A stretch of 64,000 bases of DNA from Streptacidiphilus anmyonensis (lineage in GTDB: Bacteria > Actinomycetota > Actinomycetes > Streptomycetales > Streptomycetaceae). This document shows, in pieces, positions 18,701 to 52,562 of the stretch. The stretch lies in NCBI RefSeq assembly GCF_000787855.1, contig NZ_BBPQ01000027.1, positions 9,049 through 73,048 on the forward strand, read 5' to 3'. The notes beneath the pieces were generated by a model. It made no database searches. It worked only from the letters and a program-made list of their open reading frames with translations, and was not told where the DNA came from. Each line of letters starts with the position of its first letter. The first letter of the stretch is position 1. A program made the position numbers and the translations under genes.

Positions 18701-19597
18701 ACCCATATCACCACCCCGGACGGTGCCCGCTGGCGCTACGCCTACGACCCGCTGGGGCGCCGCATTTCGAAGTCCCGGCTGGCGGAGGACAACCAGTCCG
18801 TCCTCGAGCGCACGGACTTCACTTGGGATGGTCCGCTGCTTGCCGAGCAGACGGCCACATCGCCCCACCTCCCCGGCCCGCACACGCTGAGCTGGGACCA
18901 CCAGGGACTGCATCCGCTCGCCCAGACCGAGACCATCACCGCTCAGGACCAGATCGACCGCCGTTTCTTCGCCATCGTCACCGACCTCGTCGGCACCCCG
19001 ACAGAACTGATCGATCCGCAGACCTCCACCATCGCCTGGCGCGCCGCCAGCACTCTGTGGGGCTCCACGACCTGGACCGCCGACTGCACGACTTACACCC
19101 CACTGCGTTTCCCAGGCCAGTACTTCGATCCGGAGACCCGGCTTCACTACAACCTCCACCGCTACTACGACCCCGAGACCGCCCGCTACGCGACCCCTGA
19201 CCCTCTCGGTCTTCTTCCCGGTCCCAACCCCGACGCCTACGTCACGAACCCACACACGTGGTCCGACCCCTACGGGCTCTCTCCCCACCCGAACATCACC
19301 GCCGGCAACAACTTCAAGGCGCACTACCTGAAACACCGGAGCCTGCTGGAGAAGGTGCTCGGCAAGAATTACCCGAAGTGGAAGGAGGACGAAGGAGCGA
19401 CCTTCAGGAAGGACCTGGAGGACATGATCAGTTCCGGTAGGCTCAACTCCGAGGGCCTGGGCACCTTCAAGGTAGGGCATCCGGCCGCACAGGTGTTCCG
19501 CGGTGAGGGGTTGACGCTGTTGCTCAGGCAGGATGGCGAGTTCTGGACACTCCTGGAGTCCGGGGCAGGCATGGACACAGGAATCCAGATGCTGTGA
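15788..19597 (+). CDS. Rhs/YD-repeat polymorphic toxin
   Basis: 1269 residues from GTG 15788, with only a weak SD. An Ala/Lys-rich helical start is followed by a Gly/His linker, the DUF6531-like opening of Rhs proteins (GEPVDMATGRMFIDQTDVLL), dozens of YD repeats (e.g. YEYDAAGRM, FAYDALGRM, TYDPAGNL) and the RHS core end RLHYNLHRYYDPETARYATP at about residue 1118. After YGLSPHPNITAGNNF comes a variable C-terminal domain of about 100 residues with KHRSLLEKVLGKNYPKWKED, GLGTFKVGHPAAQVF and LLLRQDGEFWTLLESGAG, faintly like colicin-D/BECR-fold RNases. The N-terminal export domain usual for such proteins seems missing; IS debris lies directly upstream. Confidence 0.88.
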   Translation: MGQIARAVKDAAEKAGKGLAKDFADAYHGILKDTEKGATKVAENAAENEAKTVEGLAKSAEHDAHAPHVEDPHAGGGGGLGHPGEGGEGGGSGREQVADPHEAGRGDDAVCGGGEPVDMATGRMFIDQTDVLLPGSLPLRFTRCFESGYGAGRWMGRRWVCTFDERLEIDGLGVVHLGADRVSQAYPHPEPGTVVQASAGRRLDLGTDSRGRVYTLTDRQQGLIREFTVQPDGRIALLTRVSDRSGRSYALEYDRDGTPLGIDHSGGYSLRVAVADGRITELWLAGGAPDGGDQLLLRYGYTGGHLTQVWNSSGLPMVFANDAAGRITSWTDRNGSHYRYLYDERGRVVDEGGADGSLRFQFRYGEPDPETGLRVNTETNALGHTTQYHVNARSQIVAEVDPLGNTTHYERDEFHRLLTVTDPLGRTTRFAYDESGDLITVTRPDGAQATAAYDDALSLPLVVGEPDGTVWHQSYDAAGRRISLTDPMGAITRFHYDERGHLASVTDVLGTTLRVECDAAGLPIRTTDPNGATVGVERDAFGRPVAVTDQLGAITRMSWTAEGLPAVRTSPDGSCDFWKWDGEGNLLSHTDKSGQTTTFEYTHFETLASRTTPDGASLTFRHDAHMQLTAVTDPLGRTWGYDYDPAGRVVGERDFHGRARSYELDAAGQMTALTDSLGIRTTFAYDALGRMVSKDADGRRTTYAYDAAGHLVRAANPDAELMRTYDPLGHLLAETVNGRTLTHTRDALGRRTRRTTPAGHVTTWGYDPSGRAVTMATTGGTLEFVHDAAGRERSRTVTARTPSASPATPAASAASATSQSLPHQPLAITRDWDSLHRLTGETVHAGESVLQRRAYRYQPDGNLAGLDDLLSGARSFDLDPAGRVTAVSAVDWTETYTYDPAGNLTDAHWPALTGASQPAQGARGYSGTELVTAGKARYEYDAAGRMTLRQVTRLSRKPDTWRFAWDAEDRLTHITTPDGARWRYAYDPLGRRISKSRLAEDNQSVLERTDFTWDGPLLAEQTATSPHLPGPHTLSWDHQGLHPLAQTETITAQDQIDRRFFAIVTDLVGTPTELIDPQTSTIAWRAASTLWGSTTWTADCTTYTPLRFPGQYFDPETRLHYNLHRYYDPETARYATPDPLGLLPGPNPDAYVTNPHTWSDPYGLSPHPNITAGNNFKAHYLKHRSLLEKVLGKNYPKWKEDEGATFRKDLEDMISSGRLNSEGLGTFKVGHPAAQVFRGEGLTLLLRQDGEFWTLLESGAGMDTGIQML

Positions 19598-28108: not shown

Positions 28109-29054
28109 CTTAGAGGGCAACTGATCTACGTATTGGGCGGTTTGGGTAACTGCAGCGAGGATGGCTCGTTGCTCGTCTCGTGAGTTCTCGACGCCCGTAC
28201 CGCAGCGATGTGTCCGACGCCCGCTGGGCCTTGATGGAGCCGGTCTTCACGGCATGGCGGGCGGCCCGCACGGGTCCCGGTGTGGGTGCCCGCGTTCACG
28301 ACCTGCGGGAGATCGTGAACGCGATTCTCTATGTCAACCGCACCGGCATCCCGTGGGAGTACCTGCCGCACGACTTACCGCCCTACAAGACCGTCTACGA
28401 CTACTACGCGAAGTGGGACGCCGACGGCACCACCCAGCAGGTCCACGACCTCTTACGCGAGCGAACCCGTCGATCCCAGGGACGCCGGCCCGACCCATCA
28501 GCCGCGGTCCTCGACGCCCAGAGCGTCAAGACCTCCAGCAACGTCGCCGAAGCCGACCAGGGCATCGACGCGGCCAAGAAGATCAAGGGCCGCAAGCGCC
28601 ACCTGGTGACCGACACCCTGGGTCTCCTGCTCGCGGTCATCGTGAGCGCCGCCTCCATCCAGGACTCAGAGGGCGGACGGCAGGCCCTCGACCAGGTCGC
28701 CGCTCAGCACCCAGGCGTGGTCAAGGTCTGGGTGGACGGCGGCTACAACGCCACGACGATCAACCACGGCGCCCGCCTCGGCATCGATGTCGAGGTGACC
28801 AAGCGCACCGCCCCGTCGGGGTTCCAGCCGCTGCCGAAGCGCTGGGTGATCGAGAGAACCTTCGGCTGGCTGATGCAGCACCGCCGGCTGGCACGCGACT
28901 ACGAAGCCCTGCCCCAGCGCTCGAGGACCATGATCCTCTGGGCCATGACTAACAAAATGAGCCGAGCGCTCACCGGAGAATCCACCCAGTCCTGGCGCAC
29001 GCCGCCAGCAGAATCGGGCAGATTGACCTAAAAGGTCATCAGATGCCCTCTAAG
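28109..29054 (+). mobile_element. Complete IS5-family insertion sequence
   Basis: About 946 bp. The left end CTTAGAGGGCAACTGAT (28109-28125) and the right end, read on the other strand as CTTAGAGGGCATCTGAT (29054-29038), match at 16 of 17 positions as terminal inverted repeats. A full transposase gene (28180-29031) fills the interior. No clear direct target duplication is seen. It interrupts a GNAT gene on the left. Confidence 0.85.
28180..29031 (+). CDS. IS5-family transposase
   Basis: 283 residues from GTG 28180. It opens YRSDVSDARWALMEPVFTAW and has the DDE motifs of the family: AVLDAQSVKTSSN (first Asp), VKVWVDGGYNATTINH (second Asp) and RWVIERTFGWLMQHRRLARDYE (Glu), with KIKGRKRHLVTDTLGLLLAV between. 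Length and motif set are complete, so this is the one transposase of the window that looks functional. It lies between clear inverted repeats. Confidence 0.92.
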   Translation: MSSRRPYRSDVSDARWALMEPVFTAWRAARTGPGVGARVHDLREIVNAILYVNRTGIPWEYLPHDLPPYKTVYDYYAKWDADGTTQQVHDLLRERTRRSQGRRPDPSAAVLDAQSVKTSSNVAEADQGIDAAKKIKGRKRHLVTDTLGLLLAVIVSAASIQDSEGGRQALDQVAAQHPGVVKVWVDGGYNATTINHGARLGIDVEVTKRTAPSGFQPLPKRWVIERTFGWLMQHRRLARDYEALPQRSRTMILWAMTNKMSRALTGESTQSWRTPPAESGRLT

Positions 29055-31783: not shown

Positions 31784-31855
31784 CGTCCGACTGTTGGCAT
31801 GTTTCGGGCAAGTTAACTGCTTGTCCGCTGTGGGGCGTTGACCTGGGGGTTCATC

Positions 31856-33022
31856 ATGATGCCCGCATCTCTGTGCACATCACCGTCCGCGCTTGCCGGT
31901 CCGCCGAACGAACCGATGGCCGCCGAGGCCGAGGAACTGGTCCGGCAGCTCGCGTCCGAGGGCCATCTGCCGCCCGGTGCCGTGGAGCAGCGCCTCCAGG
32001 AGATCAGGGACGCGTTGGAGTCCATGGGTACCTACCGGCAGAGCACGGAAGAGTTACTGGCGGGCGCGCGGATCGCGTGGCGGAACAATCCGCAGTGCGT
32101 CGGCAAGTTCTACTGGAAGGCTCTGGAGACCAGGGACTGCCGAGATGTCGGCGCCGGTAGTGCGGACGAAGCCGCGTTGTTCGAGGCTCTCGTGGAGCAT
32201 CTGCGTCTGGCCTGGAACGGTGGCAAGGTCCGGCTGCTGCTGAGCGTCTTCGCCCCCAGCGGCCCCGATCGACCTGGGCCCCGTGTGTGGAACGGACAGC
32301 TCATCCGCTACGCCGGCTACCGGCAGCACGACGGCACGGTGGTGGGAGACCCCGAGACGGCCGACCTCACCGAGGCGGTCCAGCGGCTGGGGTGGCGCGG
32401 GAAGGGCACCGAGTACGACGCGCTGCCGCTGGTCATCCAGAGGCCAGGTCGCGAGCCGCGGTGGTTCGACCTGCCCGCGAGCGCGGTCCCCGAGGTACGC
32501 ATCACGCACCCCGACTACCCCTGGTTCGAAAGGCTGGGCCTGCGCTGGCACGCCTTCCCGACGATCTCCAACCAGATCCTGGAACTCGGGGGCCTGCACT
32601 ACACGCTCGCGCCGTTCAGCGCCTGGTACACCTGCACCGAGATCGGCGCCCGGAACCTGTCCGACACCAACCGCTACGACAAACTGCCCGTGGTCGCCCA
32701 GGGGATGGGCCTGGACACCGGCCGCGACCGCACCCTGTGGCGCGACCGAGCACTGCTGGAACTGACCGCAGCCGTGCTGCACTCCTACGACCGGGCCGGG
32801 GTGTCGATCATCGACCACCACTTCGCCACCAAGCAGTTCGTCCGGCACGAGGAACGCGAGCACAAGAGCGGCCGCACGTGCCCCGCCGACTGGTCCGCGA
32901 TCGTGCCGACCACCAGCGGCTCGACCACGCCGGTGTGGCAGCGCCGCTACGAACCGACCCGCGTCCGCCCCAACTTCTCGCCTCACCCGACTCCCTGGCC
33001 CGACGGTGGCGCCGGGAGCTGA
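31856..33022 (+). CDS. nos: Bacterial nitric oxide synthase oxygenase
   Basis: 388 residues from ATG 31856 (GGGGG 6-10 nt upstream). Family landmarks: heme-ligand segment ARIAWRNNPQCVGKFYWKAL with the proximal Cys at about residue 81; IRYAGYRQHDGTVVGDPE; GRGK-like GWRGKGTEYDALPLVI; and the arginine-binding PFSAWYTCTEIGARNLSDTN with the catalytic Glu near residue 262; then HHFATKQFVRHEEREHKSGR. The length fits stand-alone bacterial NOS lacking a reductase. The heme motif has Gln-Cys-Val-Gly-Lys where RCIGR is usual. No thaxtomin genes are adjacent. It is followed 8 nt later by a frameshifted membrane-protein gene. Confidence 0.92.
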   Translation: MMPASLCTSPSALAGPPNEPMAAEAEELVRQLASEGHLPPGAVEQRLQEIRDALESMGTYRQSTEELLAGARIAWRNNPQCVGKFYWKALETRDCRDVGAGSADEAALFEALVEHLRLAWNGGKVRLLLSVFAPSGPDRPGPRVWNGQLIRYAGYRQHDGTVVGDPETADLTEAVQRLGWRGKGTEYDALPLVIQRPGREPRWFDLPASAVPEVRITHPDYPWFERLGLRWHAFPTISNQILELGGLHYTLAPFSAWYTCTEIGARNLSDTNRYDKLPVVAQGMGLDTGRDRTLWRDRALLELTAAVLHSYDRAGVSIIDHHFATKQFVRHEEREHKSGRTCPADWSAIVPTTSGSTTPVWQRRYEPTRVRPNFSPHPTPWPDGGAGS

Positions 33023-38380: not shown

Positions 38381-41317
38381 TTGAAGTTTGCGATTCTCGG
38401 TCCGTTGGAGGTTCGTTCTGACGGCATGGTGGTGGATGTGGTTCGCCCGCGCCGACGCGCGGTGCTGGTGTTTCTGCTCCTGCACGCCAACCGCAGCGTG
38501 AGCACCGAGCTCCTGGTCGACGCGCTCTGGGGTGAGGCCCCGCCCCGTACCGCTCGGGCGCAGGTCCACACAGCGGTCTCCACGTTGCGGGGTGCGCTGC
38601 CGGCAGCCCTCGGTGGGCAGTTGTCCTCCGAGGGCACCGGGTACCGGCTGACGGTGGCCGAAGGGGAGTTGGACACGACGGAGTTCGGTCGCCGGATCGC
38701 GGCCGCCCGACATTGTGTGGGCCGTGGCGCGCCGGACGATGCTGCACGCCTGTTGCGGTCGGGCCTGGGCCTGTGGCGCGGGAAGGCCCTCGCCGGGGTG
38801 GACGCCCCGTTCGCGGAGTCGGCCCGAGCCCGGCTGGAGGAGGAACGCTTCGTCGCCCATGAGCTTCTGGCGGACCTTGAGATGACGGCAGGGAGGCACG
38901 TCGAGCTGGTGCCAGTGCTGACCGATCTGCTGAACGAGCACCCGGCGCGTGAGTCGATCGCGGAACGGCTGACGTTGGCCCTGTACCGCTGTGGCCGACA
39001 GGCCGATGCGCTGGCGGTGGTGCGTAGTTTGCGCGGGCTGCTGGCCGACGAGTACGGGCTCGACCCGGGACCCGGAGTGACCGAGCTGGAGGCGGCCATG
39101 CTGCGTGGGGACCCGTGTCTCAGCTACGACACGAAGCAGCCGAGTGCAGTCAAACAGTCCACCGCGACATCCTCCGTACCCACCGTGCCCGGCGCCTCGA
39201 AACCTACTGCCCCGGCGTCGGCTGCTGTGACGACGGGCGCGGGGCTCGGGCCTGCCCAGCTTCCTCGGATGCCGGCGGGGTTCGTGGGTCGGCGGGATGA
39301 ACTGGCGGAGCTGGCCACTCTGCTGGACTCCGGCGTCGACGCGGCCCGGATCGCCGTGGTGAGCGGTCCGGCGGGCGTGGGCAAGACCTCACTCGCGCTG
39401 CGGTGGGCCCATAGCGCGGTCGACGCTTTCCCCGATGGCCAGTTGTTCGCCGATCTGCACGGCTACGACACGGCGGACTTCGAGGCCCCCGGGCGGGTGC
39501 TGGAACGATTCCTCCTGGCGCTGGGGGTCCCCGGCCACCGGATTCCCGCGGACCTGGCGCAGCGCGAGGATCTGTACCGCTCGCGGATGGCTGACCGCAG
39601 CATGTTGGTGGTGCTCGACAACGCGCACGACTACCAGCAGGTCCGACCGCTGCTGCCCGGCACGGGACACTGCCTCACCCTGGTGACGAGCCGGGGCAGG
39701 ATGAGCGGACTCGTGGCTGAGACCGGTGCGTCGTGCCTGCCACTCGGGATGCTCCCCCTGGAGGACTCGGTCGAGGTGCTGAGTCGGATCGCCGGAGCCG
39801 ACAGGGTCGAGGCCGCACCCGACTCGGCCCGTGAACTGGCCCGGCTCTGCGGTGGACTGCCACTGGCGCTGCGGATTTCGGCAGTCCGGCTGCTGGAGGA
39901 ACCGGCCACCCCGCTGGCCGGATTGGCTGCGGAGCTGACGCCGGAGGAGGACCGGTTGGCCGGGCTCGGCCTGGCGGCCGACGACCACACCGTGTCCCGG
40001 GCGCTGGACCACACCCGACAGCGGCTGACAGTCGATCAGTCCCGGGTCTTCCACCTGATCAGCCTGCACCCCGGCGCGGACATCGGTTCTGCGGCCGTCG
40101 AGGCGGTCGCCGGGAGTGGCGGGTTGCTGCGGGATTCCGCCTCGCTCCCGGTACGACAGTCGCTGCGGGCGCTGGAGGCGGTGCACCTCGTGGACCGGAC
40201 CGGCACGGACCGGTACGCGATGCACGATCTGGTCCGGCTCTACGGCAGGCAGACGTCTCCAGTGCCTCCTGCCGAACAGGACTCCGCACTCGATCGCATG
40301 TTCGACTGGTATATCCATGTCGCCTCCGCGGGGCAGCGGCTGCTCAAGCCTTCCGGCCTGCATCTTCCGTCAGATCTGATCCATCGTCTGTCCGGCAACG
40401 CTCCGGTCGAGGACGAGGAGCAGGCCGTCCAGTGGTTCGACCAGGAGATCGACAACCTGACCTCGCTGATCCAGTTGGCCGCTGTGAGGGCGAACCACCG
40501 GGTGGTGTGGCAGTTGTCGTCCGCCGTCTCCGGCTATCTGCTGCGCTGCCATCGGCTGGACGCCCTGATCGAAACCCAGAAGCTGGGCGAGTACGCGGCG
40601 AAGCAGCAGAAGAACGAGCTGGCGGCTGCGGACCTCGCCGCCAATCTGGGTATCGCCTATTCGATGCGGCGTGATCCACAGGCGAGGGGTCCGTTCGAGC
40701 GAGCCGTCTCGATCTTTCTGCGACACGGTGACCTGCGTCGGACCGCCGTCACCCGGCTCAATCTCGGCAGCCTGCACTACGAACTCGGACTGCTCGACGA
40801 CGCGGCAGTGTTCCAGTCCGCGGCCGTGGACGCCGCCCGCGAACTGGGCATGAGCCAGGTTCTGGCGGTCGCGCTCGGGAACCTGGGCCTCACCCGGAGC
40901 GATCTGGGCGACCACCAGAGCGCTCGGGAACTGTTCGTCGAAGCACAGGCGGCCGCCGAGGACTGCGGCTGGCATGCCCAGGCCACTACCACCCGCGGAA
41001 TGCTGGCCTGGGTGCTGATGCGGCTCGGCGACTTCGACCAGGGGCTGACACTGAGCAGGTTGACCTTGGACGAGGCTCTGCGCACCGGAAACTCCCTGGT
41101 CGCGGGCCGGATGCTGGACCAGGTCGGTCTCGCACTTGCGGCGCTCGGCAACTGGACCGAGGCGCGCCGGTCCTGGGGTGAGGCGCTGCGGACCTTCTCC
41201 GAGATCGACTGCCCCGAGGCGGACGCGGTCTCCGCCCGACTGCGCGGAGACCGGGACGCACTTCCCGGTCTCGACGCGGAGGGAAACCCCACGATCGCGG
41301 ATCTCCGCGCGCGGTAG
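38381..41317 (+). CDS. AfsR/SARP-type regulator (OmpR-HTH, BTAD, NB-ARC, TPR)
   Basis: 978 residues from TTG 38381; no in-frame ATG precedes it. Domain order: winged helix (MKFAILGPLEVRSDG, RAVLVFLLLHANRSVSTELL, residues 1-90), BTAD (residues about 95-245, RFVAHELLADLEMTAGRHVE), Ala/Pro linker, NB-ARC ATPase with Walker A VSGPAGVGKTSLALRW near residue 330 and Walker B MLVVLDNAHDYQQVRPL, then C-terminal TPRs (LNLGSLHYELGLLDDAAVFQ, NLGLTRSDLGDHQSARELFV). SARPs activate antibiotic clusters by binding heptameric repeats at promoters. It converges on the azol(in)e-peptide operon and is the obvious candidate activator. Confidence 0.93.
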   Translation: MKFAILGPLEVRSDGMVVDVVRPRRRAVLVFLLLHANRSVSTELLVDALWGEAPPRTARAQVHTAVSTLRGALPAALGGQLSSEGTGYRLTVAEGELDTTEFGRRIAAARHCVGRGAPDDAARLLRSGLGLWRGKALAGVDAPFAESARARLEEERFVAHELLADLEMTAGRHVELVPVLTDLLNEHPARESIAERLTLALYRCGRQADALAVVRSLRGLLADEYGLDPGPGVTELEAAMLRGDPCLSYDTKQPSAVKQSTATSSVPTVPGASKPTAPASAAVTTGAGLGPAQLPRMPAGFVGRRDELAELATLLDSGVDAARIAVVSGPAGVGKTSLALRWAHSAVDAFPDGQLFADLHGYDTADFEAPGRVLERFLLALGVPGHRIPADLAQREDLYRSRMADRSMLVVLDNAHDYQQVRPLLPGTGHCLTLVTSRGRMSGLVAETGASCLPLGMLPLEDSVEVLSRIAGADRVEAAPDSARELARLCGGLPLALRISAVRLLEEPATPLAGLAAELTPEEDRLAGLGLAADDHTVSRALDHTRQRLTVDQSRVFHLISLHPGADIGSAAVEAVAGSGGLLRDSASLPVRQSLRALEAVHLVDRTGTDRYAMHDLVRLYGRQTSPVPPAEQDSALDRMFDWYIHVASAGQRLLKPSGLHLPSDLIHRLSGNAPVEDEEQAVQWFDQEIDNLTSLIQLAAVRANHRVVWQLSSAVSGYLLRCHRLDALIETQKLGEYAAKQQKNELAAADLAANLGIAYSMRRDPQARGPFERAVSIFLRHGDLRRTAVTRLNLGSLHYELGLLDDAAVFQSAAVDAARELGMSQVLAVALGNLGLTRSDLGDHQSARELFVEAQAAAEDCGWHAQATTTRGMLAWVLMRLGDFDQGLTLSRLTLDEALRTGNSLVAGRMLDQVGLALAALGNWTEARRSWGEALRTFSEIDCPEADAVSARLRGDRDALPGLDAEGNPTIADLRAR

Positions 41318-41345
41318 AACGGCCCGGACACCGCCGTAGACGGAC

Positions 41346-41393
41346 GAGTGCCCTGCGGGGGCCGGGTGCTGACCCAGTCCCCGCAGGGCACTC
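41346..41393. terminator. Bidirectional terminator between regulator and RiPP operon
   Basis: GAGTGCCCTGCGGGG (41346-41360) and CCCCGCAGGGCACTC (41379-41393) are perfect 15-bp complements between the convergent regulator and dehydrogenase genes. Confidence 0.88.
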
Positions 41394-42072
41394 ATGCCGG
41401 GCTGAGCTGGTTCGCGTAGCCCAGCGCGATGGTGAAGAGGTGACGGGTGCCGGGGGCGTCCTGACGGGCGGCGCGGGTGACTTCGGAGGAGGAGCGCCCG
41501 AACACACTGGCCTCCAGGCCGTGCGTCCGGGCCGCAAGCCACACGGCATAACCGAGGGAGCCGACTCGGACCAGCAGCCCGCCGTAGGCGGAATCGTCGG
41601 TGTCGGACACCGATCCGAAGATCAGTACCAGTGCGGGAGCGGCGGTGTAGGCGTTGTGCAGGGTCGGGAGGTGGAGCGGGCCACCGTGCCGCCGCCAGGT
41701 CCCCGATTCCAACTCCGGCTCGTGCAGGCCCTGATCCAGCCCGGCGACCCGGCAGCTGGCGACCAGGATGCCCAGCTCCGGGTCGCCGTGTGGAGTCACG
41801 GGCCATTGCTGTTGCTGGGACCTGCGGGCCGATGCCAGCACATCCAGCAGCAGGGACGCCGTGGGCGTGCGTTCGTCGAAGTCCCGGACGGAGCGGCGAC
41901 CGGTGAGCACTTCCTCCAGTGTGGCCCGGTCACCGACCCGGAAGCCCTCACCGGCCGGCGGGGTGACACTGGGCGGGCGCATCCGCGCACGGCTGGGTGG
42001 AGGCGGCTGGGTACGGCGGCGTACAGCGAAACCGATCGTGTCGCGAGGCTCCTCCCAGGCGATCAACGGCAT
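41392..42072 (-). CDS. Nitroreductase-like azoline dehydrogenase (SagB-related)
   Basis: 226 residues from ATG 42072, overlapping the upstream fused gene by 10 nt. It reads LEEVLTGRRSVRDFDERTPT (family RRSxRxF start), LHLPTLHNAYTAAPALVLIF and GLLVRVGSLGYAVWLAARTH then GLEASVFGRSS, features of FMN-dependent nitroreductase-fold dehydrogenases that oxidise azolines to azoles in TOMM/RiPP pathways. As the last gene of the leftward operon it ends in the bidirectional terminator. Which of the two nitroreductase-type domains in this cluster is catalytic cannot be decided by eye; this one has the more canonical N-terminus. Confidence 0.8.
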   Translation of the reverse strand: MPLIAWEEPRDTIGFAVRRRTQPPPPSRARMRPPSVTPPAGEGFRVGDRATLEEVLTGRRSVRDFDERTPTASLLLDVLASARRSQQQQWPVTPHGDPELGILVASCRVAGLDQGLHEPELESGTWRRHGGPLHLPTLHNAYTAAPALVLIFGSVSDTDDSAYGGLLVRVGSLGYAVWLAARTHGLEASVFGRSSSEVTRAARQDAPGTRHLFTIALGYANQLSPA

Positions 42073-43790
42073 GGCATGTCTCCTTCGGACCGTGGTGCGC
42101 TGCGAAGACCGGCAACGGCGGTGACGTACTGTTCCTCCCTGGCCAGGCCCAGGGTGTCCGCGAGGCGTTCGTCCCAGCGTGCCGCGAAGGCCAGGTCCAA
42201 CCCGTAGCCGCCTGCGACCGCAGCAAGCTGGGTGCTGGCGCAGCCGGCGTCCAAGTGGGCCAGGCGGTAGGAGAATTCGGCGTACTTCGAGGCGAGCCGC
42301 GTGTCCGCGGCGACCATCACCAGCGCCGCAGTGAAGGATTCGTCCTCCAGCCCGGTCCCGGCCAGGACGTGGGACAGCGGAATCGCCTCGGGACGGACGG
42401 CGATCGCCTCATGAGTCAGGTCGCTGTACCGGAAGATCGTGCCGGGGAGGCCGAGCAGCCCGGTCTCCACGATCAGATAGAGCTCGACCGAGGCCAGCGA
42501 GCCGCCGCTGGGGACCCAGCGCTGGAGATTGCCGGAGGCCGGTTCGGACCGTAGACCGGCTACTCTCCGCATCACCTCCCCGAGCAGTTCCTCATCGAGG
42601 CAGCCACTGGGAGCGGTCGGGTCAGCTACCGGTGCCTCCCCGAACAGCCCCCGGGGCACCCGCAGTGACGGGGACAGGGGACGGCGCGGATGGGTGGGGA
42701 AGTCCGGGCGCTGTGTCATCAGCCGCCCCAGCTTCTCGTTCTCCGCACGCGGGACGTCGAGCCTGGGCGCAAGCGTGGCGGGCAGGGAGGCGACGGTCGA
42801 CTCGAAGAAGTCGCCCGAACGAGGTCGCGCAGCCTGGGCGGTCTCGTCAGCGGGTTGGAGGGAGACCCCGCAAGCAGGGCAGTCGTCGTAGGGGGCGACC
42901 CAATACCGTTGGGTGGTCATGGAGTCGATGGCGAACCGGCTGACGACTCGGCTGTCGGACATGGTGGGAAGCCGTCCGACGATCGATACGACCTGATGGG
43001 CGGCCAGCCCGGCCGCCAGCATCGTTGGCGGTTCACCGCTACCCGGTCCGGTCTGTTCCCATCCGGCTTCCGTTCGGCTGCGACGCAGACAAGCGGGGCA
43101 GGCGGTCATGCCGGCGAAGAAGGTGGGTCCGATCTCCACGTGCTGCGGGGAGGCTGCGACCCGAAGCACGGGCGCCCCGCTCAGTGCGGACCAGGCGATC
43201 GCGTCGTCGAGCGCCGTCTCCGACCGAGCGAAGTCCGGTTCGTCCGTCGATTCCACGACGACCACTACGGTACGAGCGACCGAGCGCGTCGGCGAGCCAG
43301 CCGACGGGCCGGCGAGCGTGGGCAGCGCGGTCAGCACGCTGCCGACACCGGAATCCACGAGGTCTACTACGAGCGCCTCGGCGATCGCCTGCGGGCCAAG
43401 AACGACGACAGCGCCGTCGGCGAGGGTGTCCAGCAGTTCAGCCGTGCTTCGGTAGCCCCCGGACGCGCCCAGGGTGCGGGAGAGGTACAAGACCGTCTGT
43501 TCCGACGGTGCTGCATGGGTGCTGCGAGGCTCGGCCGTCTCCAGCAGCCCCCGGCCGTCGAGCAGGTCGAGGGCCTGGTCGAGCTGACCTCTGGTCAGTC
43601 CCGTCTCCGCGCAGAGCGTGGAGGCTTCCCGGCTGCCGTCCAGCAGCGCGAACAGACGGGGGAGCACCTGGGAGGCGGCTCTGCCGCGGAAGACATGGCG
43701 GTGCGCGGCCCCCTCGACGATCAGTCCCTCCTCGAAGGGAACAACCGCGAGACCCCTGCAGAGCCGCACCTTTTCCTCGGTCGTGGGCAT
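42063..43790 (-). CDS. Fused E1-like (ocin-ThiF) and SagB-like protein of RiPP cluster
   Basis: 575 residues from ATG 43790, 13 nt after the preceding gene. Residues 1-90 look like a RiPP precursor recognition element with PqqD-like helices (VLPRLFALLDGSREASTLCA, GLTRGQLDQALDLLDGRGLL). A Rossmann/E1-like part follows (VLYLSRTLGASGGYRSTAEL, DGAVVVLGPQAIAEALVVDL), with zinc-type Cys pairs CPACLRR and CPACGVS. From about residue 365 a SagB-like nitroreductase domain appears (PSGGSLASVELYLIVETGLL, LPGTIFRYSD, KYAEFSYRLAHLDAGCASTQ). It should bind the precursor leader and present it to YcaO, with a fused dehydrogenase. A rare fusion order. Confidence 0.78.
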   Translation of the reverse strand: MPTTEEKVRLCRGLAVVPFEEGLIVEGAAHRHVFRGRAASQVLPRLFALLDGSREASTLCAETGLTRGQLDQALDLLDGRGLLETAEPRSTHAAPSEQTVLYLSRTLGASGGYRSTAELLDTLADGAVVVLGPQAIAEALVVDLVDSGVGSVLTALPTLAGPSAGSPTRSVARTVVVVVESTDEPDFARSETALDDAIAWSALSGAPVLRVAASPQHVEIGPTFFAGMTACPACLRRSRTEAGWEQTGPGSGEPPTMLAAGLAAHQVVSIVGRLPTMSDSRVVSRFAIDSMTTQRYWVAPYDDCPACGVSLQPADETAQAARPRSGDFFESTVASLPATLAPRLDVPRAENEKLGRLMTQRPDFPTHPRRPLSPSLRVPRGLFGEAPVADPTAPSGCLDEELLGEVMRRVAGLRSEPASGNLQRWVPSGGSLASVELYLIVETGLLGLPGTIFRYSDLTHEAIAVRPEAIPLSHVLAGTGLEDESFTAALVMVAADTRLASKYAEFSYRLAHLDAGCASTQLAAVAGGYGLDLAFAARWDERLADTLGLAREEQYVTAVAGLRSAPRSEGDMPCR

Positions 43791-43803
43791 TGCCGTACTG
43801 CGG

Positions 43804-44469
43804 TCAGCGGGCACCGACGGACACCGCCTCGCTGAGCCCGAGTCGCGAGCGCAGGTCAGCGAACGGCAGGGCCGGGTCGCAGCGGTCGCACCCATGACAG
43901 CCCACCACCTGATCGCTGCTGACTGTGTTTCCCCGAAGGGAGATCGTCACCACCCTCCCTCCTGGTCCACCCGCCGACCGTTGCCCATGGTCGATGAGGG
44001 CGCCCGCCACGGCAGCGGCCGTCCTGGCGTGGCCCGGCAGGAATCCGGCCGGGCCGACCTTGGGGTCGTCTGTGTAGGCGTTGAGCACGGCGCCGGATAT
44101 CTGCCATTGGCTGTCGTGCTGCACCAAGCGCCGTCGGTAGCAGCGATGGCACGGGCTCGACCCGGGTGTCACCCATGGCCCCACGCTGATCGCCTGGCGT
44201 TCCATCACCATCGGCAGCCACGGCAGGCCATGTGCGTGGGCGAAGGCGTCCGCCCGCTCGCAGAGGCCGGGCGACGGACGCCACATGGCCACGACCAGGA
44301 CGTCGGCGGGACCATCGGCGGTGCGATCCAGTTCGTCGAGGGGGAGGGTTCGGGCGGCTGGATAGCGCGTGGTCAGCAGGGCTGCCACGTGTTCTCCGAA
44401 TGGACCTGTGCCGACGAGCACCGGATTCGGCCTGGGGCTCCCGGTCGTTAGGCGAACGGTTGCGGCCAT
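43804..44469 (-). CDS. E1-like/ocin-ThiF partner protein of RiPP cluster
   Basis: 221 residues from ATG 44469; the first 22 nt overlap the end of the YcaO gene. A Rossmann start (PVLVGTGPFGEHVAALLTTR) is followed by DVLVVAMWRPSPGLCERADA, AHGLPWLPMVMERQAISVGP and two Cys pairs, SPCHRCYRRRL and GCHGCDRCD, that probably form a structural zinc site as in cyclodehydratase C/E1-like proteins. It is shorter than a full E1-like protein and lacks a leader-binding domain, which the adjacent fused gene has. The pair may act together. Exact role is inferred from cluster context. Confidence 0.72.
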   Translation of the reverse strand: MAATVRLTTGSPRPNPVLVGTGPFGEHVAALLTTRYPAARTLPLDELDRTADGPADVLVVAMWRPSPGLCERADAFAHAHGLPWLPMVMERQAISVGPWVTPGSSPCHRCYRRRLVQHDSQWQISGAVLNAYTDDPKVGPAGFLPGHARTAAAVAGALIDHGQRSAGGPGGRVVTISLRGNTVSSDQVVGCHGCDRCDPALPFADLRSRLGLSEAVSVGAR

Positions 44470-45758
44470 GGATTGAGCTCCTTTTCTCCGCGAACGGGGT
44501 AGCCCATCCGTTCCGGGACGTTGTACAAGCGGGGGTGCGCAGTGAACTGCGCAAGCGGATGAGGGCTGAAGGGCTGAAGGTCGGGGATCACGACGCAGAC
44601 CGCTGTCAGGCCCACGGACGCAAGCTCGCGTGTGGTCCGGTCGACGACCACCACACGCATGCCGGCACCGTCCAGCCGTTGGGTAAGCTGGTCCAGCGCT
44701 TGCACTGGGTCCTCCGGCAGAGGCACCGGCGTCCTCGAGTTCCTCGACTGTGCTCCCTCGATCAGGAAGTCGAACGCGGCGGACCGTTCGGCGCAGCCCA
44801 TATAGCGCGCACCGTCCTCCAGGGCGTTGATCTTCTCCAGCGCATCGGGGATCACGATGTGTTCGTCGTGGAACAGACCGCGGAGGCGCATCGCGTCGGC
44901 CAGTGCACTTTCCGCCGCCTGCTCAAGGGTCCGCCCGGTCGCAGCAGCGACCAGTCGTGAGGCACGGCGGTCATGGTCGGCCGCAAGCACGACGTAGGCG
45001 GTCGGAACGCCGAGGTCAAGGGTTGCATCGAAAACGAAACTGCGAATGAAACAGCGACGGTTCCACTCGACGAGTTCTGCTGTCCGTTCCGAGCACACAG
45101 CAGGATCGACGAGCGGCAGGGACAGTTGCTGCAACCAGGTCACGGACAAGGCGTCGCGTTCGATGACCTCGCAGATCCCACCCAGGACTGCCCGAACCGG
45201 ATCGGTATGAACGGCATAGCCGGTCGAGATAGGCATGCAGAACTCGTCCTGCGGATCCTGGCCGCGCAACCCATAGCAGGCCATGATCGCGGGGACCCAG
45301 GTCGGCTCGCCTGTGGCGAGGTCGAGGCCGCGGGTCCATCGGATCGGTGCTGTCATGGAGAACGGCCTGACCGGACAACCGGGTCGGGAGTACTCGGCCT
45401 CGGAACAGCGGGGGTAGCGGTCGGGCTCCAGGCACTCGCCGGCGAGATCCCGAGCCGAGGCCACGATCCGCTCCTCACCGAGATTGTCCATCCCGGCGTA
45501 GCGTTCGGCGCCCTCCGCGATGGAGATGAACCGCGCTGTCTCCGGCGAGTCCCAGGAGCGGCCGCCGGAGCAGACCTGGTCGGCCACCTGTCGGCTGCCG
45601 ACCCCGGGTCGGCCGCTGCCGATCGACGCGGTTCCGGACACAAACGGATACCGGGCACCGGGCCCGCCGGACCCGGTCCAGGTTCCGGAGACGACACCGT
45701 AAGGGGACACCAGTGCGTCGAGCGAGTCGGTGACCGGTGCCGCAGTCGAATGACTCAT
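44448..45758 (-). CDS. YcaO cyclodehydratase
   Basis: 436 residues from ATG 45758 (AGGAAAAG upstream). YcaO ATP-binding motifs are present: ARFISIAEGAERYAGMDN, the SxxExxER-like block GGICEVIERDALSVTWLQQL, GRTLEQAAESALADAMRLRG, and the C-terminal Pro-rich tail KELNPWPQPFA, which is critical in azoline-forming YcaO enzymes. It phosphorylates the amide and cyclises Cys/Ser/Thr of the precursor. The gene lies 109 nt downstream of the precursor gene, beyond a hairpin. This is the best-supported member of the cluster. Confidence 0.93.
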   Translation of the reverse strand: MSHSTAAPVTDSLDALVSPYGVVSGTWTGSGGPGARYPFVSGTASIGSGRPGVGSRQVADQVCSGGRSWDSPETARFISIAEGAERYAGMDNLGEERIVASARDLAGECLEPDRYPRCSEAEYSRPGCPVRPFSMTAPIRWTRGLDLATGEPTWVPAIMACYGLRGQDPQDEFCMPISTGYAVHTDPVRAVLGGICEVIERDALSVTWLQQLSLPLVDPAVCSERTAELVEWNRRCFIRSFVFDATLDLGVPTAYVVLAADHDRRASRLVAAATGRTLEQAAESALADAMRLRGLFHDEHIVIPDALEKINALEDGARYMGCAERSAAFDFLIEGAQSRNSRTPVPLPEDPVQALDQLTQRLDGAGMRVVVVDRTTRELASVGLTAVCVVIPDLQPFSPHPLAQFTAHPRLYNVPERMGYPVRGEKELNPWPQPFA

Positions 45759-45813
45759 CTTTTCCTCATCCTCATCGTGCGACCGGCCGCACACATCATT
45801 GACGCGTAGGGGC

Positions 45814-45849
45814 GGTGGCCACCGACCACGACAAGATCCGGTGGCCACC
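45814..45849 (-). terminator. Attenuator-like hairpin between precursor and YcaO gene
   Basis: GGTGGCCACCG (45814-45824) and CGGTGGCCACC (45839-45849) form a perfect 11-bp stem with a 14-nt loop, 19 nt past the precursor stop and 55 nt before the YcaO start. This arrangement commonly raises precursor over enzyme expression. Confidence 0.7.
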
Positions 45850-45867
45850 ACACCTGCTAACGGAACA

Positions 45868-46005
45868 TCAGAAGCAGGAGATGACCACGCATGCCAGGCA
45901 CCCGGCGGGGCCGCAGGCGCTGCAGTCGTTCTCGTTCAGGCCCGCGACGATCGCCTTGTCCTCGATGGAGTCGGCGATCAGATCCAGCGGCTCGAACTCA
46001 TTCAT
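45868..46005 (-). CDS. RiPP precursor peptide, Cys/Ser-rich core
   Basis: 45 residues from ATG 46005, with AGGAG 10-14 nt upstream. The leader is acidic (MNEFEPLDLIADSIEDKAIV, then AGLNEN) and the C-terminal DCSACGPAGCLACVVISCF holds five Cys and two Ser as candidate azol(in)e positions, with Gly/Ala spacers and a hydrophobic VVI. It starts the leftward operon that encodes YcaO, E1-like and dehydrogenase proteins. No cleavage motif is certain; a cut near Asn-Asp or Gly-Leu would release a short peptide of about 20 residues. I do not recognise a described product with this sequence. Confidence 0.88.
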   Translation of the reverse strand: MNEFEPLDLIADSIEDKAIVAGLNENDCSACGPAGCLACVVISCF

Positions 46006-46737: not shown

Positions 46738-47475
46738 GTGCTTGTCTACCCGTCCGCGATAGACGTATCCGGTTCAGCCCGGCGCCTGCTCTGACACCAC
46801 CTGGCCGAGCGCCGGAACCGGCTGAGGACGCGCTGGCGTCGGCTGTCCACGGGGCAGCAGGCCCTGCTCGCTCTCACTCATCTGCGCTGCGGCGAGACCT
46901 ACCAGCGCTTGGCCGCGGCCTTCGACATCGGTGTTGCCACCGCGTATCGGTACGTCCGTGAGGCCATCGAGGTGCTCGCCGCCTTGGCCCCGACCCTGGA
47001 CCAGGTCGTGCAGGTCGCCGCGACGAAGGCGTTCGTCATCCTGGACGGCACCCTGCTGCCCATCGACCGCGTCGCCGCCGACCGCCCCTACTACTCGGGC
47101 AAGCACAAGAGGCACGGCGTGAACGTGCAGGTCATCACCGATCCATTCGGGCGTCTGCTGTGGGCATCGCCGGCCCTGCCCGGCGCGGTCCACGACATCA
47201 AGGCCGCCCGCACTCACGGGATCATCGACGCCCTGACCACGGCCGGCATCCGCTGCTGGGCCGGTCCGCGCCGACTACCGCGGCCGCTGGACCAACCTAT
47301 CCGCCGGCCAGAAGGCCGTGAACCTCTCCCACGCGAAGATCCGCGCCGTCGGAGAACAGGCCATGGCCACCCTCAAGGGCTGGCGACTCCTGCGCAAGCT
47401 CCGCTGCAGCCCGAGCCGCATCACCAGCACCGTCAAGGCAGTCCTCGTCCTGCACCTCGCACCGGCATCATGAGG
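46738..47475 (+). pseudogene. IS5-type (DDE_Tnp_4-like) transposase, inactivated
   Basis: GTG 46738 opens VLVYPSAIDVSGSARRLL and hits an in-frame TGA at 46792, directly before HLAERRNRLRTRWRRLSTGQ. It then reads on with ALTHLRCGETYQRLAAAFDI, TKAFVILDGTLLPIDRVAAD and RPYYSGKHKRHGVNVQVITD. Around 47255 a frameshift occurs, and the last part (GEQAMATLKGWRLLRKLRCS) is in another frame. The motifs are those of HARBI1-like IS5 transposases. One nonsense codon, one frameshift and probably an internal deletion make it inactive. Confidence 0.8.
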
Positions 47476-47477
47476 CC

Positions 47478-47936
47478 ATGCACTGCACCGAATGGCACTA
47501 CGTCTGCCGCTCCTGCGATCATCGGTTCACCCTGCCAGGGGCCGACCTGTCATTCAGCTACGGCGCCTTCCTCGGCGTCTCCTCGACCCCGGAGGCGGTC
47601 CTTCTCGATGCCTTCGCTGACCCGGCATACGCGGAGATCCAGGCCTTGGTCAGCGAAGACGAGCGAACCACCGGCCTGACGGCAGTGGCTACAGGCCAAC
47701 TCGCCCGCACCGTGGCCGGGAGCGTTTTCGACCCAGACAGCAACCGCTCGCCGTTCACCTTCGCCGGGACTCCTCCATGTCCCCGGTGCACATCGAGTGA
47801 GATCGCACTCCTCCGCGCCACAGAGACGCGCTGGCCGGGCGATATCAGCCCGGCCACCCATAAGCAGTGGGACGCCCTGACCTCCGCCGAGAAGGCAGCA
47901 GCCGTGAGCCACATCCTGAGTGCCCTGCATCGCTGA
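47478..47936 (+). CDS. Zinc-ribbon-like hypothetical protein
   Basis: 152 residues from ATG 47478 (ATGAGGCC just upstream). Two Cys pairs, YVCRSCDHRFTLPG near the N-terminus and PPCPRCTSSEIALLR near residue 103, are spaced like a zinc-binding fold. The middle is acidic (DAFADPAYAEIQALVSEDER). I do not recognise it; a plasmid- or island-type accessory gene is likely. Confidence 0.55.
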   Translation: MHCTEWHYVCRSCDHRFTLPGADLSFSYGAFLGVSSTPEAVLLDAFADPAYAEIQALVSEDERTTGLTAVATGQLARTVAGSVFDPDSNRSPFTFAGTPPCPRCTSSEIALLRATETRWPGDISPATHKQWDALTSAEKAAAVSHILSALHR

Positions 47937-48102
47937 GCTGGCTGTGTCACTGGTTGTGGGCTCTGGTCCACTTCGTGTGGAGCGGTGACTCTCTGTTGTT
48001 CACGGCCGTCGTGCATAGCCATTGACCAGACTCTGGCTCTGGTGTCGGTGGGACGGCCGACAATGCCGGGCATGGCAGATCGCAGTCTGGTCACACGGAT
48101 CA

Positions 48103-48785
48103 TCACTTCAGCAGCGCGGGAGTCCCTGAAGCCGCTTGGCCTGGTCCTCGGGCCCGGACCGCCTTGCGGATCCGCGCGTTCACGCTCTCGATCGCGTTCG
48201 TCGAGCAGATCACCTTGCGGATCTCCACGTCGAAGTGGAGAAAGGGCGTGAACTCGGACCAGGCGTCGGACCACAGCTTGATCACGGCCTGATACTTCTT
48301 GCCCCCGGCCTCGGAGAACTCCAGGAACCGCTCGGTCGCGGCGGCCTCGTTGGGGGCGGTGTAGACGGGCTTGAGCGCGCAGGCCATCTTGTCCCGGTCC
48401 ACCTGCGATGCGTAGCGGAAGCTGTTCCGAAGCAGATGAACGACGCAGGTCTGAACGATTGTTCGAGGCCAGACAGCCACCGCGTCCGGCAGCCCCTTCA
48501 AGCCGTCGCAGACCAGCATGAGGACGTCGTTCACCCTGTGGTTCTTCAGCTCGGTGAAGACCTGCAGCCAGTGCTTGGCCCCTTCACCGCCGTCGCCGGC
48601 CCAGATGCCGAGGATGTCGCGGGTGCCCTCGACCGTGACCGCCAAAGCCAGGTAGATCGGCCGGTAGGCGACCTGGTCCCCGCGGACCTTCACGTTGATC
48701 GCGTCCACGAACACGACCGGATAGACCGGGTCGAGGGGACGTGACTGCCATTCAGCCATCCCCTCCATGACCTGGTCGGTGCAGG
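48103..48785 (-). pseudogene. IS256-family transposase remnant (catalytic core)
   Basis: Reads EGMAEWQSRPLDPVYPVVFV, DAINVKVRGDQVAYRPIYLA, DILGIWAGDGGEGAKHWLQV, LMLVCDGLKGLPDAVAVW and EIRKVICSTNAIESVNARIR. The catalytic DDE core of Mutator transposases is thus present, but the N-terminal third is missing and the C-terminal RARGHFP segment is replaced. It truncates a SnoaL-like gene at its upstream end (48786). Confidence 0.85.
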
Positions 48786-50564: not shown

Positions 50565-51213
50565 GACAATGATTTCCTCTCGGACGTGCCTGGGGTCGGC
50601 GGGGATGACGCAGGAAACCGATTCGCCGCCGCCGGGTGTCCCCCTTTGGCCCACCCTAGGCACCTCTGCGACCATCTGCACCCGGATGCTCTCTCCACCG
50701 CGGCTGCCCACCAGGGGTGCTCATCGGGGCGGAGACCAGTACGACCGGCCAAGCCTTGCGGTAGCCGAGGAGTGCACCCCACAGGACGGTCCAGGAGAGC
50801 GCCACACCGATCAACCAGGCCAGTACCACGCGCGCCGTGCTGGGTAAGCGCCGCTCCCGGCGGAGACGAGGCTGTAGACGGCGGGGAGCCACACCACCAA
50901 CAACCCGCAAGGGCGGCCGGAGCCTGTGGGCTGTCACGGCGGGCGAGGTCATCCAGGCGTGACCCGCCTTCTCGGGGGAACTGCGTCGCCCGTCTGAAGG
51001 CGCCGCACAACGCGATCCTCTCCGAGCGACTCCTGGCCAGTGCCGGCGTTCGGTGACTTGCGCGGCGGCGCGCGATTCTGCCAGGAGGGTGATGCCGTGA
51101 ATTATTGGCTGCTTCGAGGGGCACGCTACTCCAACGCTGCATCCCGATCATGGCAACGCCGCCTGCAGGCCTCGTCGTAAACGGGGGATGCGACCGACGT
51201 GTGGAGGTACCAG
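50565..51213. other. Spacer with a possible small membrane ORF
   Basis: About 650 bp. A leftward frame at 50656-50952 contains one hydrophobic segment (ARVVLAWLIGVALSWTVLWG) with an Arg-rich start; this could be a small membrane protein but has no SD. Otherwise nothing is supportable. Confidence 0.3.
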
Positions 51214-51684
51214 ATGGCCGAGCTCCCACCACCGCCAGAAGGAATTGTGCTGGCCCACTTCATCGTCTCGGACGATGTCGAGCGCTCTCGACGCTTCTAC
51301 ACCGAAGTACTCGGCGGCCGGGTGGTCTACTCTGGCCCCGGAGGGCTGACCTATGTCGCACTAGCCAACAGCTGGATCATCATTAATGTCGGCGGAGGCC
51401 CGACCGATGACAAGCCGACGGTCAGCCTGGAGACGCCGCGCGATCCCGACCGGATCAACAGCTTCCTCAATATCCGGGTCAAAGACATCCACGCCTTGTA
51501 CGCGGAGTGGAGCGCCCGTGGTGCTCAGTTCCTGACGCCGCCGAAACAGCACCAGTATGAGATCCGCTGCTACATCCGCGACCCTGACGGCCATCTGATC
51601 GAAGTAGGTCAAACTACCGACCCAGAGGGAGACTGGTCACCCGCTCACTGGCCGTCAAGTACGCGCGCCGGCGATTCGGAGTGA
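51214..51684 (+). CDS. VOC-family protein (glyoxalase/bleomycin-resistance fold)
   Basis: 156 residues from ATG 51214 (GGAGG upstream). Reads GIVLAHFIVSDDVERSRRFY then TEVLGG, TYVALANSWIIINVGGGPTD and IRDPDGHLIEVGQTTDPEGD; the final E of EVGQ and the first H in LAHFIVSDD are the usual metal-ligand positions of VOC dimers. A paralogue lies at 52119. Substrate unknown. Confidence 0.88.
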   Translation: MAELPPPPEGIVLAHFIVSDDVERSRRFYTEVLGGRVVYSGPGGLTYVALANSWIIINVGGGPTDDKPTVSLETPRDPDRINSFLNIRVKDIHALYAEWSARGAQFLTPPKQHQYEIRCYIRDPDGHLIEVGQTTDPEGDWSPAHWPSSTRAGDSE

Positions 51685-52118: not shown

Positions 52119-52562
52119 ATGGTCGAGCTCCCGCCGCCCCTCGAGGGGATTCTGCTGGGACACTTCATCGTCTCGGACGATGTCGAGCGCTCTCAGCGCT
52201 TCTACACCGAGGTGCTCGGCGGTACCACGATCTTCGACGGAGTGCCGACCGTCGTCGCCCTGTCCAACACCTGGATTGTCATCAACGCAGGTGGCGGTCC
52301 GACCGATGACAAGCCGACGGTCACCCTGGAGACGCCGCGCGATCCTGACCGAGTCAACAGCTTCCTCAATTTCCGGGTCAAGGACATCGAGGCCGTATAC
52401 GCCGAGTGGAGCGCCCGTGGTGCTCAGTTCCTGACGCCGCCGAAGCAGCACCCGTACGAGACCCGCTGCTACCTCCGCGATCCCGACGGCCACCTGATCG
52501 AGGTGGGGCAGACCACCGACCCGAGGGGGGATTGGGCACCTGCTTTCCCCTCGCCGGCCTAA
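52119..52562 (+). CDS. VOC-family paralogue
   Basis: 147 residues from ATG 52119 (GGAGGTG upstream). Same architecture as 51214-51684, with HFIVSDDVERSQRFYTEVLG and RDPDGHLIEVGQTTDPRGD, and long identical nucleotide blocks such as CACTTCATCGTCTCGGACGA (52160). The C-termini differ (WSPAHWPSSTRAGDSE against WAPAFPSPA). A tandem duplication with later divergence is the simplest explanation; the intervening spacer is not duplicated. Confidence 0.88.
   Translation: MVELPPPLEGILLGHFIVSDDVERSQRFYTEVLGGTTIFDGVPTVVALSNTWIVINAGGGPTDDKPTVTLETPRDPDRVNSFLNFRVKDIEAVYAEWSARGAQFLTPPKQHPYETRCYLRDPDGHLIEVGQTTDPRGDWAPAFPSPA

What the first reader, a model, noticed from the sequence alone, without database searches (positions are those of the whole stretch)
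38381..46005. Compact YcaO-dependent RiPP cluster, probably a linear azol(in)e peptide
Seen: a 45-codon Cys/Ser-rich precursor gene, YcaO, an E1-like partner, a fused E1-like/SagB-like protein and a standalone nitroreductase-like dehydrogenase, overlapping or within 13-110 nt of each other on one strand, opposed by a SARP/NB-ARC/TPR regulator. Known: YcaO plus leader-binding E1-like proteins install azolines in TOMM peptides, and nitroreductase-like enzymes oxidise them. Inferred: a linear thiazole/oxazole peptide, since I see no lanthipeptide-type dehydratase or [4+2] cyclase. I do not recognise this combination and precursor as a described product.
Basis: partly seen in the sequence, partly recalled or inferred. 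Interest (0 to 1): 0.9.

Follow-up and report, generated by a model that had tools for sequence, protein, structure and literature searches.

The report
Thiopeptide ring enzymes, different peptide
A bacterial operon sets a 45-residue cysteine-rich peptide gene beside relatives of the four ring-making genes of berninamycin-type antibiotics, with none of the other thiopeptide genes found nearby, so it likely makes a different thiazole peptide, probably oxidised by an enzyme shared between two proteins that each keep only part of the usual flavin-site motifs.

Summary
In detail: a 45-aa precursor gene, a YcaO, a small E1-like protein, an RRE/E1-like/SagB-like fusion and a nitroreductase-like protein form one operon, closed by a strong hairpin and faced by a SARP regulator. 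The enzyme set is not new. It is the split azole cassette of 35-membered thiopeptides (GenG2/G1/E2/E1 of geninthiocin, SulD/E/F/G of sulfomycin); one relative found here ends in a berninamycin-type core, SCTTTSVSTSSSSSSS. Of 51 distinct loci with the fusion, 30 form a clade holding the berninamycin-type loci; the window lies outside it and has no detected dehydratase, pyridine synthase, exporter or tailoring gene. A thiazole peptide that is not a thiopeptide is the best reading; 'linear' is untested. The new point is the dehydrogenase. The fusion keeps the PSGG loop and Lys-Tyr but lacks RRSxR; the nitroreductase-like partner keeps RRSxR but lacks the other two. Complete ThcOx-type chains carry all three. 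In 46 loci both halves are kept (looser motif rule; 31 by the strict rule), and in the 5 where the fusion lost Lys-Tyr the partner's motif or the partner is gone too. This predicts one composite FMN site per heterodimer. No chemistry was tested, and the sulfomycin paper was not available.

The parts
45868..46005 (-). Precursor peptide gene, 45 aa, acidic leader and Cys-rich C-terminus
   Evidence: ribosome site, GC3 0.93; leader LDLIADSIED resembles LDLLVDDIEEDL of sister locus L083; no database relative
44448..45758 (-). YcaO cyclodehydratase (SulD/GenG2-like), C-terminus NPWPQPFA
   Evidence: TIGR03604 and PF02624 above cutoff; about 55% identical to the YcaO of L083
43804..44469 (-). Small E1-like partner protein (SulE/GenG1-like)
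   Evidence: TIGR03882 above cutoff; conserved next to the YcaO or the fusion in relatives
42063..43790 (-). Fusion of RRE-like, E1-like and SagB-like domains (SulF/GenE2-like); keeps PSGG and KY, lacks RRSxR
41392..42072 (-). Nitroreductase-like protein (SulG/GenE1-like); keeps RRSxR, lacks PSGG and KY
41346..41393 (.). 22-nt inverted repeat ending at the last stop codon, probable end of the operon and of the facing gene
   Evidence: folds at -56.9 kcal/mol, z -6.7; has no T run, so the terminator scan did not list it
38381..41317 (+). SARP/BTAD-NB-ARC-TPR regulator, convergent; predicted activator of the operon
   Evidence: a relative of it lies near the cassette in 8 of 19 near loci (L011, L012, L051, L052; L082, L083, L086, L089; the L051 match covers only the first 243 residues)

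Best explanation
This operon is likely a small cluster for a thiazole-bearing ribosomal peptide that is not a thiopeptide, made by relatives of the berninamycin/sulfomycin azole enzymes and predicted to be oxidised at one flavin site shared by two proteins that each keep only part of the usual site motifs. Inferred steps: (1) the RRE-like start of the fusion binds the acidic leader; (2) the YcaO, helped by the small E1-like protein, uses ATP to turn core Cys residues (5 present) into thiazolines; (3) the fusion's SagB-like domain pairs with the nitroreductase-like protein, which gives the FMN-phosphate motif RRSxR while the fusion gives the PSGG loop and Lys-Tyr, so that the mixed pair has one complete site and thiazolines become thiazoles; (4) leader removal and export use genes elsewhere; (5) the facing SARP protein switches the operon on. 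Shown by sequence: gene order, domain make-up, kinship, the division of the motifs, their joint loss in relatives. Not shown: any chemistry, the core boundary, which Cys react, linearity, the heterodimer.
For: Same four-gene set as geninthiocin and sulfomycin (PMC6306032 passages; PMC10634744 passages, which report SulEFG and SulDEFG complexes). Berninamycin-type precursors in relatives L069 and L010. Window outside the 30-locus clade that holds them (SH-aLRT 99), sister to L083 (92). No hit of 13 dehydratase, pyridine-synthase, transporter and tailoring queries in the window. Motif division: R.[ST].R.[FYW] in 0 of 51 fusions; complete ThcOx-type chains in L008, L064, L087, L091 have all three motifs. 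Joint loss: 46 of 46 kept, 0 of 5 kept where Lys-Tyr is lost. Overlapping reading frames of fusion and partner. FMN touches both chains in nitroreductase-fold dimers: Arg 15 of one and Ser 41 of the other in NfsA (PMC8286842 passages).
Against: No exporter or protease seen near the cassette, while 9 of 19 near relatives have an ABC transporter; the cluster could be a remnant. tblastn at 1e-3 is blunt: the ThcOx query did not even find the window's own SagB-like domain, so distant tailoring genes may be missed. The motif rule R.[STA] was set after seeing the table; by R.[ST].R it is 31 of 46 against 0 of 5, and nine berninamycin-type partners read RRSxL. On the tree there are only 4 changes and 2 well-supported independent pairs, too few for a test. 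L008 keeps both halves and has a ThcOx-type gene as well. The precursor's profile score is weak. Only single chains were modelled, and where Lys-Tyr sits relative to the two sites was not examined.
Confidence: 0.62

Rival explanations
1. The nitroreductase-like protein and the SagB-like domain are two separate dehydrogenases, each active by itself.
For: Both have the nitroreductase fold; GenE1 and GenE2 are each annotated as a thiazoline dehydrogenase in the geninthiocin table (PMC6306032 passages).
Against: Each lacks motifs that complete relatives hold in one chain, and the two are kept or lost together.
Confidence: 0.14
2. The cluster is a remnant or an incomplete copy that no longer makes a finished product.
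For: No exporter, protease or tailoring gene detected; transposase pieces lie just upstream at 46.9-48.8 kb; 0 of 13 other genomes of the genus have the fusion.
Against: All five frames are open, the catalytic motifs are intact, ribosome sites precede the precursor and NTR genes, and a strong hairpin closes the operon.
Confidence: 0.13
3. It is a thiopeptide cluster whose dehydratase and pyridine-synthase genes lie elsewhere in the genome.
For: Same azole cassette as berninamycin-type thiopeptides; the genome has Lant_dehydr_N genes on contigs C141 and C107.
Against: Those genes are unlinked; the core is Cys-rich and lacks the SC...SSSS pattern of L069 and L010; the window lies outside the 30-locus clade.
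Confidence: 0.06
4. The 45-aa ORF is not the precursor and the enzymes act on another peptide.
For: No database relative and a weak profile score, below two unrelated ORFs.
Against: It lies 109 nt before the YcaO, as precursors do in most near relatives, with a ribosome site, coding-like base use and a leader like those of L083, L050 and L082.
Confidence: 0.05

Closest known systems
Geninthiocin/berninamycin/TP-1161 azole genes (GenG2, GenG1, GenE2, GenE1)
   Same: YcaO, small E1-like protein, E1-like/dehydrogenase fusion and second dehydrogenase side by side (PMC6306032 passages)
   Different: Those clusters also have LanB-type dehydratase genes, a pyridine-forming enzyme and a Ser-rich core; here none was found and the core is Cys-rich
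Sulfomycin SulD/E/F/G
   Same: Same protein kinds, reported to act as SulEFG and SulDEFG complexes (PMC10634744 passages; original paper not seen)
   Different: Sulfomycin also uses SulB/SulC; the window has a single YcaO, the genome's other YcaO is on another contig and 26% identical
ThcOx, McbC and other one-chain azoline dehydrogenases
   Different: One chain carries all motifs there; here they are divided between two proteins
AlbAB cyclodipeptide oxidase
   Different: AlbB is not nitroreductase-like and AlbA forms its own dimer; here both halves are nitroreductase-like
Dehydrazoles (YcaO plus DUF4135)
   Same: YcaO and dehydrogenase on a Cys-rich core (PMC10676384 passages)
   Different: No DUF4135 hit in the window; near relative L008 does have one

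Membership tests
Thiazole/oxazole-modified RiPP (TOMM) | YcaO cyclodehydratase | tested here: met
   TIGR03604 266 bits, cutoff 219; C-terminal PWPQP fits the PxPxP end of azoline-forming YcaOs (motif recalled; sequence)
Thiazole/oxazole-modified RiPP (TOMM) | E1-like/RRE leader-binding partner | tested here: met
Thiazole/oxazole-modified RiPP (TOMM) | Linked precursor rich in Cys/Ser/Thr | tested here: met
   45868-46005, 5 Cys and 3 Ser, 109 nt before the YcaO; profile support weak
Thiazole/oxazole-modified RiPP (TOMM) | Azol(in)e rings in the product | not testable with these tools
   Needs mass spectrometry
Linear azol(in)e-containing peptide | Product linear, no cyclising enzyme | tested here: inconclusive
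   No hit to 13 tailoring queries in the window, but the search is blunt and genes elsewhere are possible
Thiopeptide (berninamycin type) | Split azole cassette | tested here: met
   All four genes
Thiopeptide (berninamycin type) | LanB-type dehydratase and pyridine synthase in the cluster | tested here: not met
   No hit to LanB and Lant_dehydr_C queries in the window or in 28.9 kb fetched of the 33.1 kb left on the contig; Lant_dehydr_N only on other contigs
Thiopeptide (berninamycin type) | Core starting with Ser and rich in Ser/Thr | tested here: not met
   Core region NDCSACGPAGCLACVVISCF against SCTTTSVSTSSSSSSS of L069
Dehydrazole | DUF4135 dehydratase next to the YcaO | tested here: not met
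   No hit of the L008 DUF4135 protein in the window
YcaO-TfuA thioamide RiPP | TfuA partner gene | not tested
   No TfuA search was run
Composite two-chain azoline dehydrogenase (proposed here) | FMN-site motifs divided between two encoded proteins and kept or lost together | tested here: met
   46 of 46 against 0 of 5 by R.[STA], 31 of 46 against 0 of 5 by R.[ST].R, in all 51 loci found; rule set after the fact, 4 changes on the tree
Composite two-chain azoline dehydrogenase (proposed here) | The two proteins bind one FMN together | not testable with these tools
   Pairs could not be modelled; needs biochemistry

The most novel reading that the evidence does not exclude
Actinobacteria carry a widespread azoline dehydrogenase built from two half-complete nitroreductases: one fused to the leader-binding scaffold and holding the Lys-Tyr and PSGG parts, the other free and holding the FMN-phosphate arginines, so that only the mixed pair has a complete flavin site. 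The module serves berninamycin-type thiopeptides and, as in this window, a second set of lineages with Cys-rich peptides, where it is combined with MNIO, sulfotransferase, LanB or LanM-type enzymes, or with none.
Probability: 0.6. Interest if true: 0.62.

Novelty: new variant of a known kind. Interest (0 to 1): 0.55.

Why it matters
The geninthiocin authors wrote that it is unclear how the split azole-forming proteins of this cassette work with each other (PMC6306032). The division of motifs gives a direct, testable answer for the dehydrogenase: two incomplete subunits, one flavin site. It also shows that an enzyme set described from thiopeptides is a more general azole module, found with several other kinds of RiPP enzyme, and it offers a very small system (one precursor, four enzymes) for reconstitution. 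For annotation, the small nitroreductase-like gene, which falls below Pfam's cutoff here, should be read as part of the dehydrogenase.

Tried and rejected
Considered and rejected: thiopeptide membership (no dehydratase or pyridine synthase found, no Ser-rich core); dehydrazole membership; the precursor as a chance ORF (position, ribosome site, base use and leader likeness speak against it, but two unrelated ORFs at 16107 and 35064 score higher in the profile search); a role for the genome's second YcaO (contig C77, 26% identical, none of the other cassette queries hit there).

Led nowhere: the protein search with the precursor; the PDB sequence search with the nitroreductase-like protein; a search of 121 genomes of another family with a Micromonospora fusion (family guessed, 0 hits, shows nothing); a sigma-70-type promoter scan (none found); the plasmid collection (one distant hit). 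The closest fusions by sequence (Nonomuraea P0008, 49-52%; Micromonospora P0009 and P0010, 46-47%) could not be fetched with their surroundings.

38 of the 51 were read with long flanks at first (L091 added later for L081); the other 12 only with about 1.5 kb on each side. Gene calls in relatives come from a simple finder of my own, so absences there are not proof. No convincing precursor in 4 of 20 near relatives (L007, L084, L086, L088; L088 is cut by its contig end and lacks the YcaO); in L051 and L052 the candidate lies behind, not before, the enzyme genes. In one search a [KR][YF] pair occurs in 1 of 50 partners (L083, away from the aligned place) and a PSGG-like string in 2 of 50 (L034, L067; not looked into). 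The tree is a quick one with long branches (L083 among them).
Full report
What is there. On the minus strand, in order of reading: a 45-aa precursor (45868-46005), a YcaO (44448-45758), a small E1-like protein (43804-44469), an E1-like/SagB-like fusion (42063-43790, 575 aa) and a nitroreductase-like protein (41392-42072). The spaces run from a 22-nt overlap to a 109-nt gap. A 22-nt inverted repeat ends at the last stop codon and folds at -56.9 kcal/mol, z -6.7; it has no T run. Beyond it lies a convergent SARP/NB-ARC/TPR gene (38381-41317). The operon therefore probably ends with the nitroreductase-like gene.

Where the cassette comes from. The four genes recur together. Searches gave 51 distinct loci with the fusion: 6 of 100 relatives, 25 of 391 genomes of the order, 10 of 394 of the class, 13 of 297 of the family that holds Streptosporangium (overlapping sets; the first three count the window's own genome), plus named records. 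In the window's own genus 0 of 13 other genomes had it. The set matches GenG2, GenG1, GenE2 and GenE1 of geninthiocin, whose authors call the split non-traditional and say it is unclear how the proteins function with each other (PMC6306032, passages), and SulD, E, F and G of sulfomycin, reported to form SulEFG and SulDEFG complexes (PMC10634744, passages; the original paper by Du and colleagues is not held and was not seen). PMC4603692 (passages and its thiopeptide section) notes thiopeptide clusters with discrete C and D proteins, TP-1161 and berninamycin among them. The link shows in the fetched sequences too: L069 has a precursor ending SCTTTSVSTSSSSSSS and L010 one ending SCTTSGCACSSSSSSSS; L010 has Lant_dehydr_N and Lant_dehydr_C genes, and L069 has members of the same two protein groups. 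PMC8448680 gives SCTTTGCTTSSSSSSSS as the sulfomycin core (passages).

Why the window is not filed as a thiopeptide. In a quick tree of the RRE/E1 part of the fusion, 30 loci form one clade (SH-aLRT 99) that holds the berninamycin-type loci; not every member of that clade is shown to be a thiopeptide cluster (13 of the 18 read with long flanks hit a Lant_dehydr_C query). The window lies outside it, sister to L083 (92), both on long branches. None of 13 queries (two ABC transporters, MNIO and its partner, sulfotransferase, JmjC, LanB, DUF4135, ThcOx, two unnamed families, M50/PqqD, Lant_dehydr_C) hits the 64 kb at 1e-3 or the 28.9 kb fetched of the 33.1 kb left on the contig. The test is blunt: the ThcOx query does not find the window's own SagB-like domain. 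The genome has Lant_dehydr_N genes only on other contigs and no MNIO gene. The core region, about NDCSACGPAGCLACVVISCF, is Cys-rich and poor in Ser.

The near relatives. Twenty loci besides the window lie outside the 30-locus clade. Sixteen have a convincing precursor, with leaders such as DFDLEVEETEEFDL (L082), DIDLEVEETEELDM (L050) and LDLLVDDIEEDL (L083), here LDLIADSIED; others share W[ED]EL or the like. One search tested 19 of the 20 (L091 was looked at apart): MNIO with a partner in 3 (L050, L082, L083), sulfotransferase in 9, ABC transporter in 9, JmjC in 5, full LanB in 2 (L012, L087), DUF4135 in 1 (L008); families named by Pfam. The window has none. It may be a minimal form or a remnant; open frames, intact motifs and the closing hairpin favour a working unit, the missing exporter speaks against it.

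The divided dehydrogenase. Complete ThcOx-type chains in L008, L064 and L087 carry RxSxR, a PS[GA] loop and WKY in one domain, as does the one in L091 (printed). In the cassette these are divided. R.[ST].R.[FYW] occurs in 0 of 51 fusions in the 110 residues before the PSGG loop; the partner lacks Lys-Tyr at the aligned place and the PSGG loop (alignments; text hits 1 and 2 of 50). All 30 rows of the partner's database alignment (the window's own among them) keep R.[ST]V and none has K[YF] in the stretch searched. Of 51 fusions, 46 keep [KR]Y and all 46 partners keep R.[STA]; 5 fusions lost it (L052, L064, L081, L086, L087). Of those five, three partners have changed the motif, L064 has a shrunken partner without it, and L081 has none behind the fusion. 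The plain one-sided p is 4e-7, but the rule was written after seeing the table; by R.[ST].R it is 31 of 46 against 0 of 5, p 0.007, nine of the misses being berninamycin-type partners with RRSxL and six having Ala for Ser. Outside the 30-locus clade the strict rule gives 15 of 16 against 0 of 5. Neither p allows for kinship: the tree needs 4 changes for each trait, and only 2 independent pairs lie on well-supported branches, both going the same way, too few for a test. Three of the five with loss carry a complete ThcOx-type gene, as if replaced (L064, L087; L091); L008 has one although both halves are kept.

Why this suggests one shared site. [quoted passage not shown] in NfsB it is bound to residues of both monomers (PMC10051150, passages); in AlbA R24, R28 and R175 hold the phosphate (PMC11055893, passages). 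If RRSxR comes from the partner and the PSGG loop from the fusion, a mixed dimer has one complete and one empty site, and neither homodimer has any. That PSGG corresponds to the Ser loop reaching over from the other chain is my reading of the fold, partly recalled. Only single chains could be modelled.

Literature. Searches of the held library listed no paper that describes this cassette with a non-thiopeptide precursor or the divided motifs; most subscription papers are not held, so this is weak evidence. PMC10676384 (dehydrazoles), PMC12452194 (MNIO landscape) and PMC13174530 (a YcaO-TfuA/MNIO cluster) were seen in passages and describe other combinations.

Verdict. It is a new variant of a known kind: a thiopeptide-type azole module on a non-thiopeptide peptide, with a testable proposal for how its odd dehydrogenase works.

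Noticed in passing
L050 13026-14641, L082 13337-14955, L083 7707-8663: MNIO enzymes (PF05114) follow the azole cassette in the three loci, among them the window's sister locus: a possible azole/MNIO hybrid peptide family.
   Followed up: partly
L012 1711-5301, L087 5698-8847, L008 7651-9276: Full-length LanB (L012, L087) and a DUF4135 dehydratase (L008) in near-relative clusters with the same cassette.
   Followed up: partly
L013 5528-6715 and kin: A protein with PqqD and peptidase M50 domains has relatives in 14 of the 18 long-flank loci of the 30-locus clade; several of these have repeated precursors of the type ..SASCPxSSA...
   Followed up: no
window 31838-33022: A nitric oxide synthase oxygenase gene (PF02898, 457 bits), about 5 kb beyond the SARP gene.
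   Followed up: no
window 46909-48768 and 28180-29031: Transposase genes or pieces on both sides of the cluster, which fits recent movement.
   Followed up: no
window 51199-51684 and 52119-52562: Two neighbouring glyoxalase-fold genes that look like a duplication.
   Followed up: no
window 15788-19597: A long RHS-repeat protein.
   Followed up: no
L097 / L099 (contig C77 of the window's genome): A second YcaO gene of the genome (346 bits, long open frame), 26% identical to the window's and without the other cassette genes nearby.
   Followed up: partly
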